From Thermomonas sp. (GTDB lineage Bacteria; Pseudomonadota; Gammaproteobacteria; Xanthomonadales; Xanthomonadaceae): a stretch of 43,556 nt of DNA. The stretch lies in contig NZ_JADZDS010000144.1 in NCBI RefSeq assembly GCF_020850895.1, forward strand, positions 1-43,556, in the 5' to 3' direction. A program made the position numbers and the translations under genes. Below the pieces are notes generated by a model. That model saw only the letters and a list, made by a program, of their open reading frames with translations. It was not told where the DNA came from and did not search any database. This document shows positions 3,026-32,632 of the stretch, piece by piece. The stretch's first letter is position 1. Each line of letters opens with the position of its first letter.

Positions 3026-3063
3026 GGTGGCATCCGGGCGCGTGGCGCGTTGATGGGATGCCC

Positions 3064-3275
3064 GCTCTGTCCTTCTGCCTGAGAGTTTGAACCGCATCGC
3101 CGAGGGGAGGGTGGCGAACGCAGCGGTCTTGCCCCTTCGGCGCCAGCTCGCGCGGTTCAGACGCGTGCGGGTCTCTCCAGAGTGTGTTCACACGGCGGTC
3201 ATTGGCCTGAGCGATTCCGGGCAGTTGCGCCTTCGGCAGCCTCGCGTGACCGGTGACACGCGCGCTTCTCCCACC
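3064..3275 (-). promoter_or_regulatory. Tandem glycine riboswitch in the gcvP leader
   Basis: Read on the minus strand, two consecutive glycine aptamers are visible. The first (about 3182-3275) has a GGGAGA start, TGCCGAAGGCGCAA, GGAATCGCTCAGGC and a GACCG end. The second (about 3064-3180) has TCTGGAGAGACC, GCGCCGAAGGGGCAA and ACTCTCAGGCAGAAGGACAG. These are the conserved core strings of the family. Between the second aptamer and the gcvP ATG, a possible expression-platform hairpin (3029-3035 pairing with 3056-3062, GGATGCC/GGCATCC) ends about three bases before the start codon. Such riboswitches normally turn on glycine cleavage when glycine is high. Confidence 0.93.
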
Positions 3276-17770: not shown

Positions 17771-17901
17771 GGGCAATGCTGAAGAAGTCCCTCCTGGACG
17801 TGTCAGCACACGCAGTTCACGCGGAACAATCACTTCGGTGATCGATCCGCGGCCGACCATCCATGGTCGGCAGGCAACGCCGACTGAACCAGCGTTGCTT
17901 T
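17771..17901 (+). repeat. Multi-hairpin intergenic element, copy A (shortened)
   Basis: This stretch is homologous to 24261-24416 base for base over most of its length. Hairpins in order are a GCTGA...TCAGC stem with GTCC/GGAC inside, the TTCG-loop stem (ATCAC/GTGAT core), CCGACC/GGTCGG, and GCAACGC/GCGTTGC. It lacks the 11-bp hairpin that copy B carries between the first and second of these. Its TTCG stem has one extra mismatch, and its right end is degraded (GCTTT instead of GCCCTT). It lies between the AlkA-like gene and the TraB-like gene. Confidence 0.85.
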
Positions 17902-24127: not shown

Positions 24128-24260
24128 GGTTCGGTGTCTCCGCGAATCAGTGCGAGGATACGATGGACCCGGCCCGCTGTGAACGCTTGAACGCGGAATG
24201 TGGGCATGCAGGAAGCACACTCTGGCTGTTCCGGCATGCGTGTGGCCGGTTTGCGGCCAT

Positions 24261-24416
24261 GGGCAATGCTGGCCAAGTCCGTCCTGGACGTGACAGCGCA
24301 CGCTGCGTCCGGTGCATGCCCGGACGCAGCTCACGCGGATCAATCACTTCGGTGATCGATCCGCGGCCGACCATCCATGGTCGGCAGGCAACGCCGACTC
24401 AATCAGCGTTGCCCTT
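24261..24416 (+). repeat. Multi-hairpin intergenic element, copy B (fullest copy)
   Basis: A 156-bp element between the kinase start and the YbbN-like gene. Five hairpins in order: an imperfect GCTG...CAGC stem; an 11-bp perfect stem with a 7-base loop (24302-24312/24320-24330); a 13-bp stem with one A-C mismatch and a TTCG loop (24334-24347/24352-24365); a 9-bp stem (24366-24374/24377-24385); and an 8-bp stem (24387-24394/24406-24413). The ends GGGCAATGCTG and CAGCGTTGCCC are inverted repeats (10 of 11), and the right one overlaps the last hairpin. See copies A and C. Confidence 0.9.
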
Positions 24417-24422
24417 GGTGCA

Positions 24423-25319
24423 TTACGCCAGCAGCAAAGCCGACATCTGCCGGCGGTAGCGGGTCACCAGGTCATCATCGTCCAGCACGCGGAACGCATC
24501 GATCAGCGACCGGCGTGCCAATCCGTCTTCATAGGTGCGGTTGCGGCGCAGCATTTCCATGAACTGGGCCAAGCCCGCCTCGGCATCGCCGGACACCAAT
24601 TGGCGCACCCCGAGCAGGTGACGTGCGCGCAGGTCGGCAGGATCGATAGCGATTGCCGCCTCCAGCACCTCTGCCGGAGGCGCGTCGCGCAGCAGCGCGG
24701 CAAAGCCCAGCCGCGCGCGTGCCTTCACGGTGCGCTCGTCGGTGGCGAGGTTGGCGGGCAGCGCGTCGAGCAACTGCTCCGCTTCGCCAGTGGCGCCGAT
24801 CTGCAGCAGGGCCAAGGCGAGATCGAGCTTGAGTTCGGCCGTGTTCGGCTCGGCTTCGATGGCCTTGCGCAGGCGCAGCACCTCGGCGTGCGGGTCCAAC
24901 GGCGCGGCCACCTCAGCCGCAGTTTCGTCCGCTGGCGCCGGCGCGGGCTGCACGCCCAGCTGTGCCAGCATCTCGCGCAGCTGCCCTTCCGGAGCGCCGG
25001 GCATCACGCCGAGCACTTGCCCGTCCTTGATCACCGCGATGGTCGGGATCGAGCGGATCTGGAACGCCGCCGCCAGTTCCTGTTCCTGGTCGACGTCCAC
25101 CTTGGCCAGCAGGAATGCGCCGTTGTACTCGGCGGCGAGTTTTTCGAGGATCGGCCCGAGGGCCTTGCAGGGCCCACACCAGGTGGCCCAGAAGTCCACC
25201 AGAACAGGCGTTTGCAGGGATTTCTGGATGACCTCGGTCTCGAAGTTGTCGGCGGTGGCGTCGAAAACATTCGGCGTCGGGGTTGGTGTCGGGTTCATGG
25301 CGTTGTCGTCGAGGGGCAT
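24423..25319 (-). CDS. YbbN/CnoX-like thioredoxin-TPR co-chaperone
   Basis: A 298-residue protein with an N-terminal thioredoxin domain carrying an intact WCGPC active site (residues 47-51) and cis-Pro loop SIPTIAV. An Ala/Pro linker is followed by tetratricopeptide-like helices (about 140-298), with the family tail FMEMLRRNRTYEDGLARRSL. Proteins of this type shield unfolded or oxidised clients for chaperonins and DnaK. The intact CxxC implies that redox activity is possible here, unlike in E. coli YbbN. The start may be 25319 or the ATG at 25298. Divergent from the DUF2178-like gene. Confidence 0.9.
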   Translation of the reverse strand: MPLDDNAMNPTPTPTPNVFDATADNFETEVIQKSLQTPVLVDFWATWCGPCKALGPILEKLAAEYNGAFLLAKVDVDQEQELAAAFQIRSIPTIAVIKDGQVLGVMPGAPEGQLREMLAQLGVQPAPAPADETAAEVAAPLDPHAEVLRLRKAIEAEPNTAELKLDLALALLQIGATGEAEQLLDALPANLATDERTVKARARLGFAALLRDAPPAEVLEAAIAIDPADLRARHLLGVRQLVSGDAEAGLAQFMEMLRRNRTYEDGLARRSLIDAFRVLDDDDLVTRYRRQMSALLLA

Positions 25320-25371
25320 GCCCCAGTAGATGGTGTCGATGGCCTTCAGTGCAAGATGATGTAAAAAATTG

Positions 25372-25433
25372 TTGACATTGCAATCCGATAATGTAATTTA
25401 TGAATTACATAAAGTTGAGTTTAGATTACATCC
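25372..25433 (+). promoter_or_regulatory. AT-rich promoter/operator region of the DUF2178-XRE module
   Basis: This is the most AT-rich spot of the window. It holds a consensus -35 TTGACA (25372-25377), a perfect 7-bp inverted repeat TGTAATT/AATTACA around TATG (25392-25409), and a further ATTACA half-site (25425-25430). TAGATT (25422-25427) stands exactly 6 bases before the ATG. Two promoters are possible: one from TTGACA with a weak TAATTT -10, or a leaderless one from TAGATT. The palindrome is a candidate operator for the XRE protein encoded two genes on. Confidence 0.5.
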
Positions 25434-26081
25434 ATGCACAGTAAGTCCTCGAAAGTCCCCTTCCTCGCCTGGTTGCTGCTGGCCGGGATCGGGCTCACGC
25501 TGTTCTTCACCGGCGAATACCGGGACCTCCCGATCCCCTTGGGCTGGATGGGGACCGTCTTGTTCGTGGCGGCGGTGTGGTTTTCCGTCGACCGCCTGTA
25601 CAAATTCCCCGCCAACGACGCCGAAGCCCGGGTTGCGCCGGGCGAATGGCAGGCGTGGATCGGGGTGGCCTTCGTAGGCGTGGTGATCGTCACCAGCCTG
25701 CTCCATGCCGATGTGTTCCGTGCGCATGTGCCGATCAGGCACAACCCCGAAGCCGGCCAGGTCGGCGAGAAGATCGGCACCCTGTTCGTGGCCTGGCTGG
25801 TGCTTGTGCATGTGCTCAAGCAGCGCTGGGCCGGCAAGGTGCTGGCCGACGAGCGCGACCTGCAGATCGATCGCATCGCCGGGGAATGGGGGCGCTGGGC
25901 GACTGTGTCTTGCGTGATCGGGATTGCCTTGGTGCTCGGCTTCAGCGACATCGAACGGTTGCGCGAGTTCAGTTATCCGTTCATCGCCCAGATGCTGATG
26001 TTCACCGTGCTGTGGGGGCTGTGGTTCGACCAACTGGTGGCCGCACTCCTGTACTGGCGTGACCGCCGGGCGGCCGCATGA
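25434..26081 (+). CDS. DUF2178-like membrane protein paired with an XRE regulator
   Basis: A 215-residue inner-membrane protein with about six hydrophobic segments. The sequence [17 protein letters not shown] (about residues 138-154) between segments resembles the DERDxxI signature of DUF2178 proteins, which commonly sit next to small Cro/CI-type regulators. Function is unknown. Its stop overlaps the XRE start (ATGA). It has an AT-rich upstream region with a palindrome unlike anything else in the window. Confidence 0.7.
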
Positions 26082-26296
26082 GCGGCACGCTTGTCAGCAA
26101 CCAGATCCGCCGCCTCCGCTTCGAGCGCGGCGAGATGACCCAGCAGGCCTTGGCCGATGCCTGCGGGGTGACGCGGCAAACCATCATCGCGCTGGAAGCA
26201 GGGCGCTACGCGCCGTCGCTGGAATTGGGGTTTCGCATCGCCGATGCACTCGGTGTGCGGATCGAGGAGGTGTTTCAATGGAGCAAGCAGGGATGA
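26078..26296 (+). CDS. Small XRE-family (Cro/CI, YozG-like) transcriptional regulator
   Basis: A 72-residue protein that is almost only a helix-turn-helix: [20 protein letters not shown] followed by [20 protein letters not shown], then [14 protein letters not shown]. It is the usual small-repressor type. The ATGA overlap with the upstream membrane protein gene means the two are made together, so it probably controls that operon, perhaps through the palindrome at 25392-25409. Confidence 0.93.
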
Positions 26297-26916
26297 ATAT
26301 CTCTCTGGCAGGTAGCACAATCCTGCAAACGCATGTCACTGGAGCCTGCCGATGAAAAAGCCGGTCCTGCTGGCTGCCGTGGCATTCGCGCTATGCGCGA
26401 CGGCGCTGGTGCTGGCCGGTGTTGGCCTGCCCGAGTATTCGCATCGCCTGCACCCCGTGGCCTTGCGCGGAGCGACAGGCGTGCCGGATGCGTGGCTGTT
26501 CAATGTCGCGGCCTTCGTCCTGCCCGGCCTCTTACTGGCATGGGCGGGCCAGAGTCTGGGCGCGGCCTTGCGCGAGGGGCGTTGGGGCGTACGCATCGGC
26601 CTGACCCTGGTGCAATTGTCGGCGTTGGCGTTCGCGCTGCAAGGCGCGCTGCCGCTGGATCCGGAGCATCTGGATACGGGGGCCAGCCGCTTGCACGCGG
26701 TGGCGTGGGCGCTGTGGTGGATCGCCTTCGTTCCCGGGACCCTGCTGCTGGCACTGTCCGCGAAGCGTGGGCTGGGCTTTGCCGCCGCCTGCCTGGCAGT
26801 GGCCGTGCTGCTGCCGCTATTTGGCGTGTTGGCCCCTGTCGATGGCTGGGTGGGGTTCGAGCAGCGCTTGGCGCTGGCGCTCTGGTTTTGCTGGTGGCTG
26901 CTGGCGGCGCGCAGCC

Positions 26917-29999
<3,083 letters not shown>

Positions 30000-30201
30000 A
30001 CTGTTGCCGGAGAAGCACGAAGGACGCCCTGATCTCGTCCCTGCTTTCAGGACACCCGTCCAAGCAGCATCGGCCGGCCCTGTTGCCGTCCCGCCAATCC
30101 ATCCCCTCGATCCAGCCGTGCTGCAATGCGCGTGCCCATCTGCAGCCCTTGGGCGCCGCAGCACCTCATCCCGCCGGCGTCTGGTTGACCCGGACTTGCC
30201 C

Positions 30202-30207
30202 TAGACT
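30202..30207 (+). promoter_or_regulatory. -10-like hexamer for lptE, probably leaderless
   Basis: TAGACT lies exactly 6 bases before the lptE ATG and no ribosome site is present. TTGACC occurs at 30185-30190 but only 11 bases away, too close for a normal -35. The 214-base gap after leuS contains nothing else that I recognise. Confidence 0.4.
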
Positions 30208-30213
30208 ACGCGG

Positions 30214-30729
30214 ATGAAACCACGCTTCGCTGTCCTTGCCCTGATCGCCGGCTTGCTCACCGGCTGCGGTTTCCACCTGCGCGGGGCCTTGAACCTGCCC
30301 GAGCATCTAGGCCCGGTGCGGGTGCTTGCCTCCGATTCCCATAGTCCGCTGGGGGATCTGCTCGCACGGGAACTGCGTCGCGCTGGCGCCCAGCCAGCGA
30401 CGGTGCAGGACGGCGAACACGTGGCGACCCTGCAGGTCATTTCCGAATATTGGGCCGATACCCCTGTCAGCCATGATGCGTTGGGACGCGCACAGGAATA
30501 CATGTTGCGCTACGCCGTCGTGTTCACCCTGCGGCGTGCCGATGGCAGCGTGGCAGTGCCGCAGCAGGCGGTCGAACTTTCGCGCGATTACCTCACGCCG
30601 GTGTTCGATTCGGTTGGCAAGCTGAGTGAACGCGAGCGGTTGGTGGCCGAACTGCAGCGGGACATGGCCACCGCGATTCTGCGACGCGTGGATGCGGCTT
30701 CGGCGCCGCCGGCGGACGTCGTGCAATGA
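30214..30729 (+). CDS. lptE: LPS-assembly lipoprotein LptE
   Basis: A 171-residue outer-membrane lipoprotein with lipobox LLTGC (Cys18) followed by GFHLRG, the hallmark start of LptE. It plugs the LptD barrel and helps insert lipopolysaccharide into the outer leaflet. The size and the position between leuS and holA agree with the conserved gammaproteobacterial cluster. Its stop is 34 bases before holA. Confidence 0.95.
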   Translation: MKPRFAVLALIAGLLTGCGFHLRGALNLPEHLGPVRVLASDSHSPLGDLLARELRRAGAQPATVQDGEHVATLQVISEYWADTPVSHDALGRAQEYMLRYAVVFTLRRADGSVAVPQQAVELSRDYLTPVFDSVGKLSERERLVAELQRDMATAILRRVDAASAPPADVVQ

Positions 30730-30763
30730 ATCCCTGTCGAGCCCTTTGGGAGGGCGTTGTGGC

Positions 30764-31804
30764 ATGGAGCTGAACGCAGAGCGCCTTGCTTCGCAACTGC
30801 AGACTGAGTCGCTGCGAACGGTCTACTTGGTGGCTGGCGGTGAACCCCTGCTGGTGCAGGAAGCCTGCGATGCGGTGCGCGCAACCGCCCGTGCGCAGGG
30901 CATCGGCGAGCGCGAGGTGCATGACATGGAGGGTCGCGATGCCGATTGGGACGCCCTCGACGCCTCGATCCACGCGCCCAGCCTGTTTTCCAGTCGTCGA
31001 CTGATCGAGGTGCGTTTGCCCACCGGCAAGCCTGGCCAGGAGGGTGCCAAGCGGATTGTGGCGTTTTGCACTGCGCCACCACCCGACGTCGTCCTGCTGG
31101 TGGTGGCAGGCGAATGGTCGAAGGCGCACGCTGGCAAATGGAGTGATGCGATCGCGAAAGCCGGGCACATCGTCGTGGTCTGGCCGATCAAGCCGCACGA
31201 ACTTCCCGGCTGGGTGACCCAGCGCATGCGCAGTCGCGGCCTGAAGGCGACCCAGGAAGCCATTGCCCAACTTGCCCTGCGGGTCGAGGGCAACCTGCTG
31301 GCGGCCGCGCAGGAAATCGATAAGCTCGTGCTCCTGCAGCAGGGCAAGGATGAGGTGATCGATGGTGCGCGCATGGAAGCGCTGGTGGCCGATTCCGCAC
31401 GCTTCGATGTGTTCCGCTTGACCGCGGCTGCGCTCAATGGGGAGCCGGCGCAGGTGTCACGCATCCTTGCCGGATTGCGTGCCGAGGGCGAAGCGATCCC
31501 CGCGCTGATGGGCATGGTGGTCAAGGAGTTGACCACCATCATCGCGCTGTCACGCGCACGCAACTTCACCGAGGAATGCAAGGCGCTGCGCATCTGGGAT
31601 TCCCGGCAGGCGGTGTACAAGCGTGCACTGTCGCGGCATACGCCCGAGCGCTGGCAGTGGCTGTTGCGTGAAGCCGGCGCGGTGGATCGCATCTCCAAGG
31701 GACGGGTACGCGTCGGGCAGGAATCCCACGATGGCTGGCTGCAACTGGAACGGTTGCTGCTGGCAGTCGCGGACAAGGGCGCATTGCGCCTGCTGGCGGC
31801 GTGA
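30764..31804 (+). CDS. holA: DNA polymerase III delta subunit
   Basis: A 346-residue clamp-loader subunit that opens the beta sliding clamp. The N-terminal part has VYLVAGGEPLLVQEACDAVR, followed by the family's LFSSRRLIEVRLP and, at the C-terminus, the all-alpha collar region (ALRIWDSRQAVYKRALSRHT). No Walker motif is expected. The ATG at 30764 has GGGAGG about ten bases upstream. Its TGA overlaps the nadD GTG by three bases, so nadD is translationally coupled. Confidence 0.96.
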   Translation: MELNAERLASQLQTESLRTVYLVAGGEPLLVQEACDAVRATARAQGIGEREVHDMEGRDADWDALDASIHAPSLFSSRRLIEVRLPTGKPGQEGAKRIVAFCTAPPPDVVLLVVAGEWSKAHAGKWSDAIAKAGHIVVVWPIKPHELPGWVTQRMRSRGLKATQEAIAQLALRVEGNLLAAAQEIDKLVLLQQGKDEVIDGARMEALVADSARFDVFRLTAAALNGEPAQVSRILAGLRAEGEAIPALMGMVVKELTTIIALSRARNFTEECKALRIWDSRQAVYKRALSRHTPERWQWLLREAGAVDRISKGRVRVGQESHDGWLQLERLLLAVADKGALRLLAA

Positions 31805-32490
31805 ACGCGCCGCTGCGGGTGTTTTACGGAGGCAGTTTCGACCCCGTGCACAACGGCCATCTGGCGATTGCGCGTGCGGCCCGCGATGCCTTGGATGCGC
31901 GTGTGTTCTTGGTGCCTGCAGGCGATCCGCCGCACAAATCCGACACCTGCGCCAGCGCCGAACAACGCGCACGAATGCTGGACCTCGCCATCGAGGGCGA
32001 ACCGGGGCTGGCCGTGGATGGGCGTGAATTGTTGCGCCCGGGGCCGTCCTATACGGTCGATACCCTGCGCGAACTGCGTGCGGACTTGGGCGCGGCAGCC
32101 GCGATCGCCTGGCTGGTCGGTGCGGATTCGCTGCGGCAACTGCAGACATGGCATCGCTGGCGGCGGCTGTTCGATCTGGCCCACCTGCTCGTCGTTGAAC
32201 GTCCCGATGCCGCATTGGACGCGGCCGCCTTGCACCGCGACGCGCCTGAGGTGCTGGACGAAATCACGCCGCGGCTGTGCGCACCTTCCACCCTGGCCGC
32301 GCGGCCTTCGGGCGGGTGTTGCGTGTTGCCGCTGGCGCAGTTGCGCCCGGAATCCTCCAGCGCATTGCGCCTTCGGATCGCCCGTGGGGACGCCCGCTGG
32401 CGTGACTGGGTGCCGCCGGCGGTCGCCGCCCATATCGTCATGCAAGGCCTGTACGGCGTTTCCGCCGGTATACTGCCGAGGAACCTCTGA
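31801..32490 (+). CDS. nadD: Nicotinate-nucleotide adenylyltransferase
   Basis: A 229-residue enzyme that turns nicotinate mononucleotide and ATP into deamido-NAD. The nucleotidyl-transferase motif GSFDPVHNGHLA is at residues 10-21, and the C-terminal SSALRLRI corresponds to the ISSTxIR motif. It starts with GTG inside the end of holA. The last codons and the TGA lie inside the outer hairpin of repeat copy C, so the C-terminal residues (PRNL) are supplied by the repeat. Confidence 0.95.
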   Translation: MNAPLRVFYGGSFDPVHNGHLAIARAARDALDARVFLVPAGDPPHKSDTCASAEQRARMLDLAIEGEPGLAVDGRELLRPGPSYTVDTLRELRADLGAAAAIAWLVGADSLRQLQTWHRWRRLFDLAHLLVVERPDAALDAAALHRDAPEVLDEITPRLCAPSTLAARPSGGCCVLPLAQLRPESSSALRLRIARGDARWRDWVPPAVAAHIVMQGLYGVSAGILPRNL

Positions 32491-32632
32491 ACAATTCAGA
32501 GGTTCCCGTCGGCCACGGATGGCCGACCACGAATCGATCACGCAAGTGATTGATTCGTGTGAGCCGGGTCCGGGCCTGTACCGGACTCGGCGTGGGCTGA
32601 CAACTCCAGGAAGGAGTTGTTCAGACCATCCC
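32480..32632 (-). repeat. Multi-hairpin intergenic element, copy C (inverted)
   Basis: Read on the minus strand this is homologous to copies A and B and has the same hairpins in the same order. On plus-strand coordinates these are: 12-bp stem 32480-32491/32495-32506; 8-bp stem 32508-32515/32520-32527; 14-bp stem with one G-T pair and a GCAA loop 32528-32541/32546-32559; 11-bp stem with one G-T pair and a 7-base loop 32563-32573/32581-32591; and an imperfect ACAACTCC/GGAGTTGT stem. Stem sequences differ from copy B but keep pairing. Ends TCTGAACAA/TTGTTCAGA are inverted repeats. It covers the nadD stop codon. Confidence 0.88.

What the first reader, a model, noticed from the sequence alone, without database searches (positions are those of the whole stretch)
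24261..32632. Three-copy family of multi-hairpin elements with compensatory base changes and competing end pairing
Seen: 17771-17901, 24261-24416 and (inverted) 32480-32632 align end to end and share five ordered hairpins (four in copy A). Between copies B and C the stems differ but still pair. In the TTCG/TTGC-loop stem the outer arm GCGGATC/GATCCGC becomes ACGAATC/GATTCGT. In the next stem GCCGACC/GGTCGGC becomes GTCGGCC/GGCCGAC. In the 11-bp stem a T-A pair becomes C-G. Loop sizes stay the same (4 and 7 bases). In B and C the extreme ends are inverted repeats that use the same right arm as the last hairpin, so the two pairings exclude each other. Known: REP, SMAG and MITE elements are common in this order and are often moved by RAYT or other transposases. 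Inference: this is either a compound palindromic mobile element or a repeated structured RNA. I do not recognise the full architecture as a described family.
Basis: partly seen in the sequence, partly recalled or inferred. Interest (0 to 1): 0.8.

Follow-up and report, generated by a model that had tools for sequence, protein, structure and literature searches.

The report
Jumping hairpin DNA with protein-binding loops
A short mobile DNA element, scattered through this genome and found in many other proteobacteria, keeps the same five-hairpin shape although its letters change, and two of its loops look like landing sites for CsrA, a major bacterial RNA-binding regulator; such binding has not been tested.

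Summary
The repeats are real: the three copies align, and 41 places in this genome match, a lower bound. The element is a roughly 152-bp non-autonomous transposable element (MITE) with IS5-type ends and 4-bp YTAR target duplications (154 of 216 bases match, 108 expected, 0 of 20,000 shuffles). IS5-type transposons in relatives share ends and target. Empty sites exist in congeners.

The family is wide: 55 of 297 genomes sampled in its bacterial family, 56 of 369 in its class, 43 of 398 in its phylum. Over 54 diverged copies, 54 of 55 stem pairs show double changes (alignment fitted to the structure).

On the bottom strand, hairpin-1 and hairpin-4 loops hold GGA in 57 and 58 of 63 representatives, in CsrA/RsmA-like contexts; a top-strand loop does in 1 of 67. 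CsrA occurs in 87 of 91 tested element-bearing genomes and 107 of 148 element-negative ones; with size and completeness matched, p is 0.04.

Best reading: an IS5-mobilised MITE whose core is a CsrA-binding RNA. Mobility is well supported; CsrA binding is inferred, and three further tests gave it no support.

The parts
24262..24413 (+). copy B, full-length element (GGCAATGC ... GTTGCC)
   Evidence: CM R1 match 24262-24414, 174 bits; the last model column is the first base of the right target duplicate
24258..24261 (.). left target duplicate of B, CATG
   Evidence: right duplicate is CTTG, 3 of 4 bases equal
24414..24417 (.). right target duplicate of B, CTTG
24268..24297 (+). hairpin H1 of B: left terminal repeat paired with its inverted copy; bottom-strand apex CCAGGACGG
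   Evidence: A1 structure; GGA in the bottom-strand loop in 57 of 63 representatives
24302..24330 (+). hairpin H2 of B (absent from copy A)
   Evidence: loop variable, GGA in 0 of 63
24334..24365 (+). hairpin H3 of B
   Evidence: bottom-strand GNRA tetraloop in 33 of 63 representatives
24366..24385 (+). hairpin H4 of B; bottom-strand apex CATGGATG (24372-24379)
   Evidence: GGA in the bottom-strand loop in 58 of 63 representatives
24387..24413 (+). hairpin H5 of B: right terminal repeat paired with its inverted copy
17772..17899 (+). copy A, lacks H2; target duplicates TTTG/TTGG
   Evidence: CM R1 118 bits; duplicates (locus L023 copy)
32480..32631 (-). copy C, diverged subfamily (ends GGATGGTCTGAACAA / GGAACCTCTGAACAA); target duplicates TTAG/TCGG
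   Evidence: CM R1 166 bits; duplicates; site empty in G006, G017, G020, G011
31801..32490 (+). cytidylyltransferase-like gene (nadD-like) whose last codons and stop are supplied by the end of copy C
   Evidence: PF01467; ends ...ILPRNL* here and ...ILxxxPSSARP*-like in four relatives
24423..25319 (-). thioredoxin-TPR gene (CnoX/YbbN-like); its stop lies 10 bases from the edge of copy B, so read-through would make the bottom-strand RNA
   Evidence: PF00085 and PF14561; gene calls

Best explanation
A family of miniature transposable elements (MITEs) moved in trans by IS5-type DDE transposases. The transposase recognises the terminal repeats (GGxAxxxCTGA...) and inserts them at YTAR, often at a TAA/TAG stop codon, duplicating 4 bp. 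SHOWN: shared ends, target duplications, dispersed copies, empty sites, class- and phylum-wide spread, covarying stems. INFERRED: between the ends lies a conserved core (H1-H5) that is selected in the long run as a bottom-strand RNA. When read-through transcription makes that strand, the loops of H4 (CANGGANG) and H1 (CAGGAnG) would bind CsrA/RsmA, so that copies act as scattered CsrA-binding hairpins (decoy or tether) in untranslated regions. Which of these two effects benefits the element is not known.
For: Mobility: target duplications in three sets, 154 of 216 bases versus 108 expected (54 copies), 183 of 256 versus 124 (64 copies, 2 of them loci of the first set) and 181 of 240 versus 123 (60 copies), each 0 of 20,000 shuffles. 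14 of 30 transposase loci give 14-base terminal repeats with an exact 4-bp duplicate. In G026, G009 and G007 the IS ends resemble the element ends of the same genome. Empty sites. Six copies share one internal deletion at different loci, two with exact duplicates, so ends suffice for movement. RNA core: GGA in bottom-strand loops of H4 58 of 63 and H1 57 of 63, H3 5, H2 0, H5 0; at least two such loops in 54 of 67 bottom strands; top strands 1 of 67 have any. CANGGANG in 59 of 67 bottom and 4 of 67 top strands, 4.8 in shuffles. H3 is a bottom-strand GNRA loop in 33 of 63. CsrA in 87 of 91 element-bearing versus 107 of 148 element-negative genomes, p 2.4e-6; in one family outside the class 24 of 26 versus 3 of 7, p 0.011.
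Against: No transcription or binding data. Flanking genes read the top strand more often than the bottom (54 versus 37 of 91 tandem cases, p 0.09), and copies read on the bottom strand do not keep two GGA loops significantly more often (27 of 34 versus 27 of 39, p 0.42). Single copies in this genome show no extra constraint at GGA (6 of 114 deviations versus 87 of 2067 in stems). G-U pairs are rare on either strand, with only a weak, non-significant tilt to the bottom strand, which fits DNA-level upkeep at least as well. No promoter within copy B and no terminator in its region. The CsrA association weakens to p 0.04 when genomes of at least 90% completeness and 2.0 Mb are compared; G514 (98% complete, one match) carries an element without a CsrA hit. 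The CM was built from copies that have these loops, so copies without them are under-sampled. No PF05598 transposase in this genome; IS ends do not match the element ends in G158 or G580.
Confidence: 0.5

Rival explanations
1. An ordinary IS5-type MITE. Each end became a hairpin by inverted duplication, and the stems stay perfect through a DNA-level process (template switching that repairs imperfect palindromes, or gene conversion), with no RNA role. Loop conservation reflects descent or an unknown DNA-binding protein.
For: Few wobble pairs on either strand (72 top GU and 136 top AC of 2785 cells; 47 and 74 of 2889). No orientation preference that favours the bottom strand. Six copies spread without H3, H4 and one H5 arm. 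Copies in this genome decay about evenly.
Against: Template switching does not explain why the H1 and H4 loops keep C-N-TCC-N-G across families whose stems have changed completely, while H2 and H5 loops drift, nor the CsrA association.
Confidence: 0.32
2. A mobile cis-acting RNA module without CsrA: a leader or 3' UTR structure that tunes stability or termination of neighbouring transcripts, akin to the gyrA RNA of Pseudomonas.
For: Bottom-strand H2-H1 resembles Rfam gyrA RNA RF01740 below its 45-bit gathering score: 29.1 bits for copy B, 26.6-42.3 in 4 of 10 loci, up to 41.5 in 13 places of this genome. Insertions sit at gene ends: a stop codon lies within 3 bases of an element end in 34 of 136 copies.
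Against: Orientation is mixed; no intrinsic terminator found in copy B; the gyrA model finds nothing in the other 142 genomes, some of which carry diverged elements.
Confidence: 0.13
3. A REP/SMAG-type palindrome moved by a RAYT tyrosine transposase.
Against: Length, terminal repeats and 4-bp duplicates fit a DDE transposon; six hairpin-deleted copies still moved.
Confidence: 0.02

Closest known systems
IS5-family insertion sequences and their MITEs (PF05598 and/or PF01609 transposases)
   Same: 14 of 30 transposase loci have 14-base TIRs (GGAGGGTCTGAACAAG, GGAAGGTCTGAACAAC) and exact 4-bp duplicates, mostly YTAR, like the element
   Different: The element has no transposase, both ends are folded into hairpins, and a covarying core lies between them; no transposase with matching ends was found in this genome
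CsrA/RsmA-sequestering RNAs (CsrB/C, RsmX/Y/Z; RsmU of Xanthomonas)
   Same: GGA in hairpin loops, in pairs (pairing rule: passage of PMC4383904); RsmU is a 3'-UTR RNA with GGA motifs that binds RsmA (passages of PMC7694677)
gyrA RNA motif, RF01740 (Pseudomonas gyrA leaders)
   Same: CGUGAG plus two hairpins, the second with a CC..GAUGG apex (alignments)
   Different: Below gathering score; loop there reads AAGAU, not GGA; listed only for Pseudomonas in PMC2864571 (passage)
QMITE1/QMITE2 of Coxiella, Correia and ERIC elements
   Same: Multi-copy intergenic MITEs that can give or alter RNAs (passages of PMC5896051 and PMC10969869)
   Different: Other ends and duplicates (7-11 nt DRs in QMITE2); no CsrA-type loops described in the passages seen
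R0/R2 repeats of Pseudomonas fluorescens SBW25
   Same: MITE-like repeats thought to be moved by a resident IS with the same inverted repeats (passages of PMC2718517)
   Different: 80-110 bp with long outer repeats and a loop; no five-hairpin core described in the passages seen

Membership tests
IS5-type MITE | many dispersed short copies without a transposase gene | tested here: met
   41 places in the genome, about 152 bp
IS5-type MITE | 4-bp target duplication, YTAR preference | tested here: met
   YTAR rule for IS5 is recalled, and seen for ISs
IS5-type MITE | ends shared with an autonomous IS5-type transposon in the same genome | tested here: inconclusive
   resemble in G026, G009, G007; not in G158, G580; none found in G000 (PF05598 only)
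IS5-type MITE | insertion polymorphism with empty sites | tested here: met
   copy C absent in G006, G017, G020, G011; L015 site empty in G017, G020, G005, G004 and filled in G006
IS5-type MITE | mobilisation in trans | not testable with these tools
   needs an experiment
CsrA-binding RNA | at least two GGA hairpin loops on one strand | tested here: met
   54 of 67 bottom strands
CsrA-binding RNA | CsrA encoded by the host | tested here: inconclusive
   87 of 91 element-bearing genomes, four exceptions of which three are 85% complete or less; CsrA in G000 itself was not searched
CsrA-binding RNA | transcribed; binds CsrA | not testable with these tools
   no expression or binding data
CsrB/RsmY-type sRNA | match to a catalogued Rfam family at gathering score | tested here: not met
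   window, 10 loci
CsrB/RsmY-type sRNA | own promoter and terminator | tested here: not met
   copy B region only, consensus scan
REP/SMAG (RAYT-moved) | 20-40 bp palindrome with GTAG or CGTC tag | tested here: not met
   152-bp element with TIRs; REP definition from the abstract start of PMC3733652
REP/SMAG (RAYT-moved) | RAYT gene in the genome | not tested
   no search made
gyrA RNA RF01740 | gathering score 45 bits | tested here: not met
   best 42.3 bits, 41.5 in this genome
gyrA RNA RF01740 | lies upstream of gyrA | not tested
   no Pseudomonas gyrA locus was available; neighbours of most G000 copies were not named

The most novel reading that the evidence does not exclude
A phylum-wide mobile RNA module: a five-hairpin core with two CsrA/RsmA-binding loops and a GNRA hairpin that persists while the transposon ends around it are exchanged. 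Most copies carry IS5-type ends, but 7 of 60 diverged copies have other termini (L204, L217, L221, L238, L240, L246, L249). By this reading the element lives off two hosts at once: a transposase for movement, and CsrA for tolerance or for manipulating the host, and it may have seeded fixed regulatory RNAs such as the gyrA leader.
Probability: 0.35. Interest if true: 0.88.

Novelty: new variant of a known kind. Interest (0 to 1): 0.7.

Why it matters
If the CsrA reading holds, bacteria would have a widespread selfish element that scatters binding sites for a global regulator, which would link transposition to post-transcriptional networks and give a ready source of new CsrA-sequestering RNAs in clades where none is known. 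Even without CsrA, this is a MITE family traceable by structure across a class and into other classes, with ends exchanged around a conserved core. That is unusual for MITEs, which are commonly taken to be short-lived deletion derivatives of one IS (recalled view).

Tried and rejected
RAYT/REP origin: disfavoured by TIRs and duplicates, without a RAYT search. Catalogued RNA: only a glycine riboswitch passes in the window, none in 10 loci; weak e-value matches to ar35, Twister-sister and HDV-F-prausnitzii in copy B are below gathering score and taken as chance. Plasmid carriage: no match for L196 or copy B in 72,556 plasmid records; phages and E. coli genomes were not searched. Bottom-strand transcription bias: not found; wide set +|+ 13, -|+ 11, +|- 9, -|- 6 by a crude longest-ORF rule, 139-copy set. 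'No copy inside a gene' (0 of 139) is not claimed as a result, since an insertion would itself break the reading frame. In one search the label 'class only' wrongly included two genomes of another class (G703, G688); one search gives the corrected figures. The L005 empty-site alignment was not informative upstream of the site. MAFFT misplaced the left flank of copy C; the uninterrupted relatives are taken from the BLAST span (G006, 468-660, 92%) and from the reading frames.

Selections: negatives for CsrA were taken in handle order, leaving out G325, G328, G329 and G337; 'negative' means no R1 match under strict filters with 7-10 candidates scored per genome, so some will be false. All 55 element-bearing genomes other than G000 were tested; of the 43, G839, G859, G890, G917 and G1059 were not. 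Copies under 40 bits and repeat loci (L001, L017, L023, L026, L043, L050) were dropped.

Papers: none read whole. Passages seen: PMC2864571, PMC2718517, PMC7694677, PMC4383904, PMC5896051, PMC10969869. Searches that found no description of this element; only open-licence papers are held.
Full report
OBSERVATION. The three copies are present at 17772-17900 (+), 24262-24414 (+) and 32479-32631 (-) by covariance model and align end to end. Copy A lacks hairpin H2. Copy C folds into H1-H5, A into H1, H3, H4 and H5; B folds into H2-H4 with its two ends paired. A BLAST query with copy B finds 41 places in the genome at E <= 8.3e-19, of 89 candidate regions with 40 scored.

HOST. G008 has the contig lengths of Thermomonas haemolytica DSM 13605 and G006 those of MAG SZAS-112, so the window's genus, and hence the window, is most likely Thermomonas (inference).

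MOBILITY. Ends are GGCAAYGCTGA... in most copies of this genome, and GGATGGTCTGAACAA... / GGAACCTCTGAACAA... in copy C. The 4 bases on each side match as direct repeats in 154 of 216 positions over 54 full copies (shuffled mean 108, 0 of 20,000 shuffles reach it; exact 11 versus 3.0); inverted matching is not raised (99, mean 109). Two further sets give 183 of 256 versus 124 (64 copies, 2 being loci of the first set) and 181 of 240 versus 123 (60 copies). The consensus is YTAR. IS5-type transposases (PF05598) are in 10 of 41 relatives and not in G000. Of 30 such loci, 14 show 14-base inverted ends with an exact 4-bp duplicate, with ends GGAGGGTCTGAACAAGTC (G026, G037) or GGAAGGTCTGAACAAC (G007, G009); elements of G026, G009 and G007 have similar ends. 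In G158 and G580 the ISs found have other ends than the elements there. Six G000 copies share one deletion that removes H3, H4 and the inner H5 arm, at different loci, two with exact duplicates, so the core is not needed in cis for movement.

EMPTY SITES. Joined flanks of 12 insertions were searched in 25 genomes of the genus. At copy C, G006 runs uninterrupted over positions 468-660 at 92%, and G017, G020 and G011 likewise. At L015 (beside a tRNA) four congeners are empty and G006 is filled. Copy C replaced the C-terminal residues of a nadD-like protein...GILPRNL* here...SSARP*-like ends in three of the four relatives and ...SSDCP* in the fourth, with the stop supplied by the element end.

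SPREAD. R1 finds the element in 55 of 297 genomes sampled in its family (20 of 54 genera), 56 of 369 in its class (44 of 272 genera) and 43 of 398 in its phylum (18 of 213 genera; E <= 1e-4); each tally includes G000, and G035 is counted in both. Of the 43, 39 lie outside the class. Plasmids: none found with two queries.

STRUCTURE. On 51 MAFFT-aligned copies 27 of 55 pairs show double changes (18.4 in shuffles). On 54 strongly diverged copies aligned by the model, 54 of 55 do, 94.6% of cells pair (67.8% in shuffles, at most 47.0% when slid), and the score is 0.628 against 0.158; this alignment was fitted to the structure.

LOOPS AND CsrA. Of 178 copies, 67 representatives were kept; 63 fold into five hairpins on the bottom strand. 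GGA is in the loop (closing bases included) of H4 in 58, H1 in 57, H3 in 5, H2 and H5 in 0 of 63. At least two GGA loops: 54 of 67 bottom strands; any GGA loop on the top strand: 1 of 67. CANGGANG occurs in 59 of 67 bottom and 4 of 67 top strands (4.8 in shuffles), CAGGA[UAC]G in 36 and 3. The most common H4 loops are AUGGAU, AGGGAU and ACGGAU closed by C-G, and the most common H1 loop is AGGAU. These match the CsrA/RsmA consensus as recalled; a passage of PMC4383904 says that CsrA sites are short GGA hairpins that generally occur in pairs. H3 is a GNRA loop on the bottom strand in 33 of 63.

PROFILE. CsrA (PF02599) is in 40 of 40 element-bearing and 32 of 40 element-negative genomes, 32 of 34 and 26 of 46, and 15 of 17 and 49 of 62 (G410 was repeated there and counted once): 87 of 91 and 107 of 148, p 2.4e-6. 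Without the two genomes of another class, the class figures are 53 of 55 and 81 of 102 (p 0.004); at 90% completeness or more 50 of 51 and 71 of 86 (p 0.005); with 2.0 Mb or more also 48 of 49 and 53 of 62 (p 0.04). In family f217, outside the class, 24 of 26 and 3 of 7 (p 0.011). Exceptions: G893 (74% complete), G944 (69%), G660 (85%), G514 (98%). No phylogenetic correction was made.

TESTS THAT GAVE NO SUPPORT. Orientation: +|+ 54, -|- 37, +|- 31, -|+ 14 of 136 classified copies; tandem bias p 0.09 and towards the top strand. GGA retention does not depend on orientation (27 of 34 versus 27 of 39, p 0.42). Top-strand AC mismatches (GU on the bottom) exceed top GU (136 versus 72; 74 versus 47), but columns do not differ significantly (p 0.63 and 0.26). 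In 19 G000 copies GGA positions deviate in 6 of 114, stems in 87 of 2067, H3 loop in 16 of 76, H5 loop in 17 of 95 and H2 loop in 7 of 126: no extra constraint on single copies. No promoter within copy B and no terminator in its region. So any selection acts on lineages of elements, not visibly on each insertion.

INSERTION PLACES. A stop codon lies within 3 bases of an element end in 34 of 136 copies, as YTAR contains TAA/TAG. Convergent places exceed divergent ones (31 versus 14, p 0.016).

gyrA RNA. RF01740 matches the bottom strand of H2-H1 below its gathering score of 45 bits: 29.1, 42.3, 32.8, 30.1 and 26.6 in 4 of 10 loci, and 13 places in G000 up to 41.5 bits, none in 142 other class genomes. 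This may be common descent or shared hairpin grammar.

VERDICT. An IS5-type MITE family (well supported), unusually wide and with a structured core (well supported); a CsrA-binding RNA role for the core (plausible, untested). No paper that describes it was found, which cover open-licence papers only.

Noticed in passing
window 3057-3190 (-): Glycine riboswitch RF00504, 57.4 bits.
   Followed up: no
window 31801-32490 with copy C: Insertion replaced the C-terminus of a nadD-like protein; the element end supplies the stop codon.
   Followed up: yes
L037 (G026:C1) 1234-1641: Head-to-tail array of element units with a 127-base period in another family of the order.
   Followed up: no
L064 (G000:C25) 1999-2162: Tandem right-half units (H3-H5) side by side.
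   Followed up: no
L032 (G017) and L060 (G000): A 23-base palindromic insert (CCCTTCGTCAAGCTCAGG...) inside the H2 loop of two copies.
   Followed up: no
L204, L217, L221, L238, L240, L246, L249: Copies with the same core but other terminal sequences, such as GCAGGCTGTTGAAAA-like ends; the matching transposons were not sought.
   Followed up: partly
L286 (G000:C97:33889-33972): gyrA-RNA-like match of 33.8 bits at a place not among the 41 BLAST places.
   Followed up: no
L028, L030, L057, L058, L059, L065: Six copies with the same internal deletion, a mobile shorter subfamily.
   Followed up: partly
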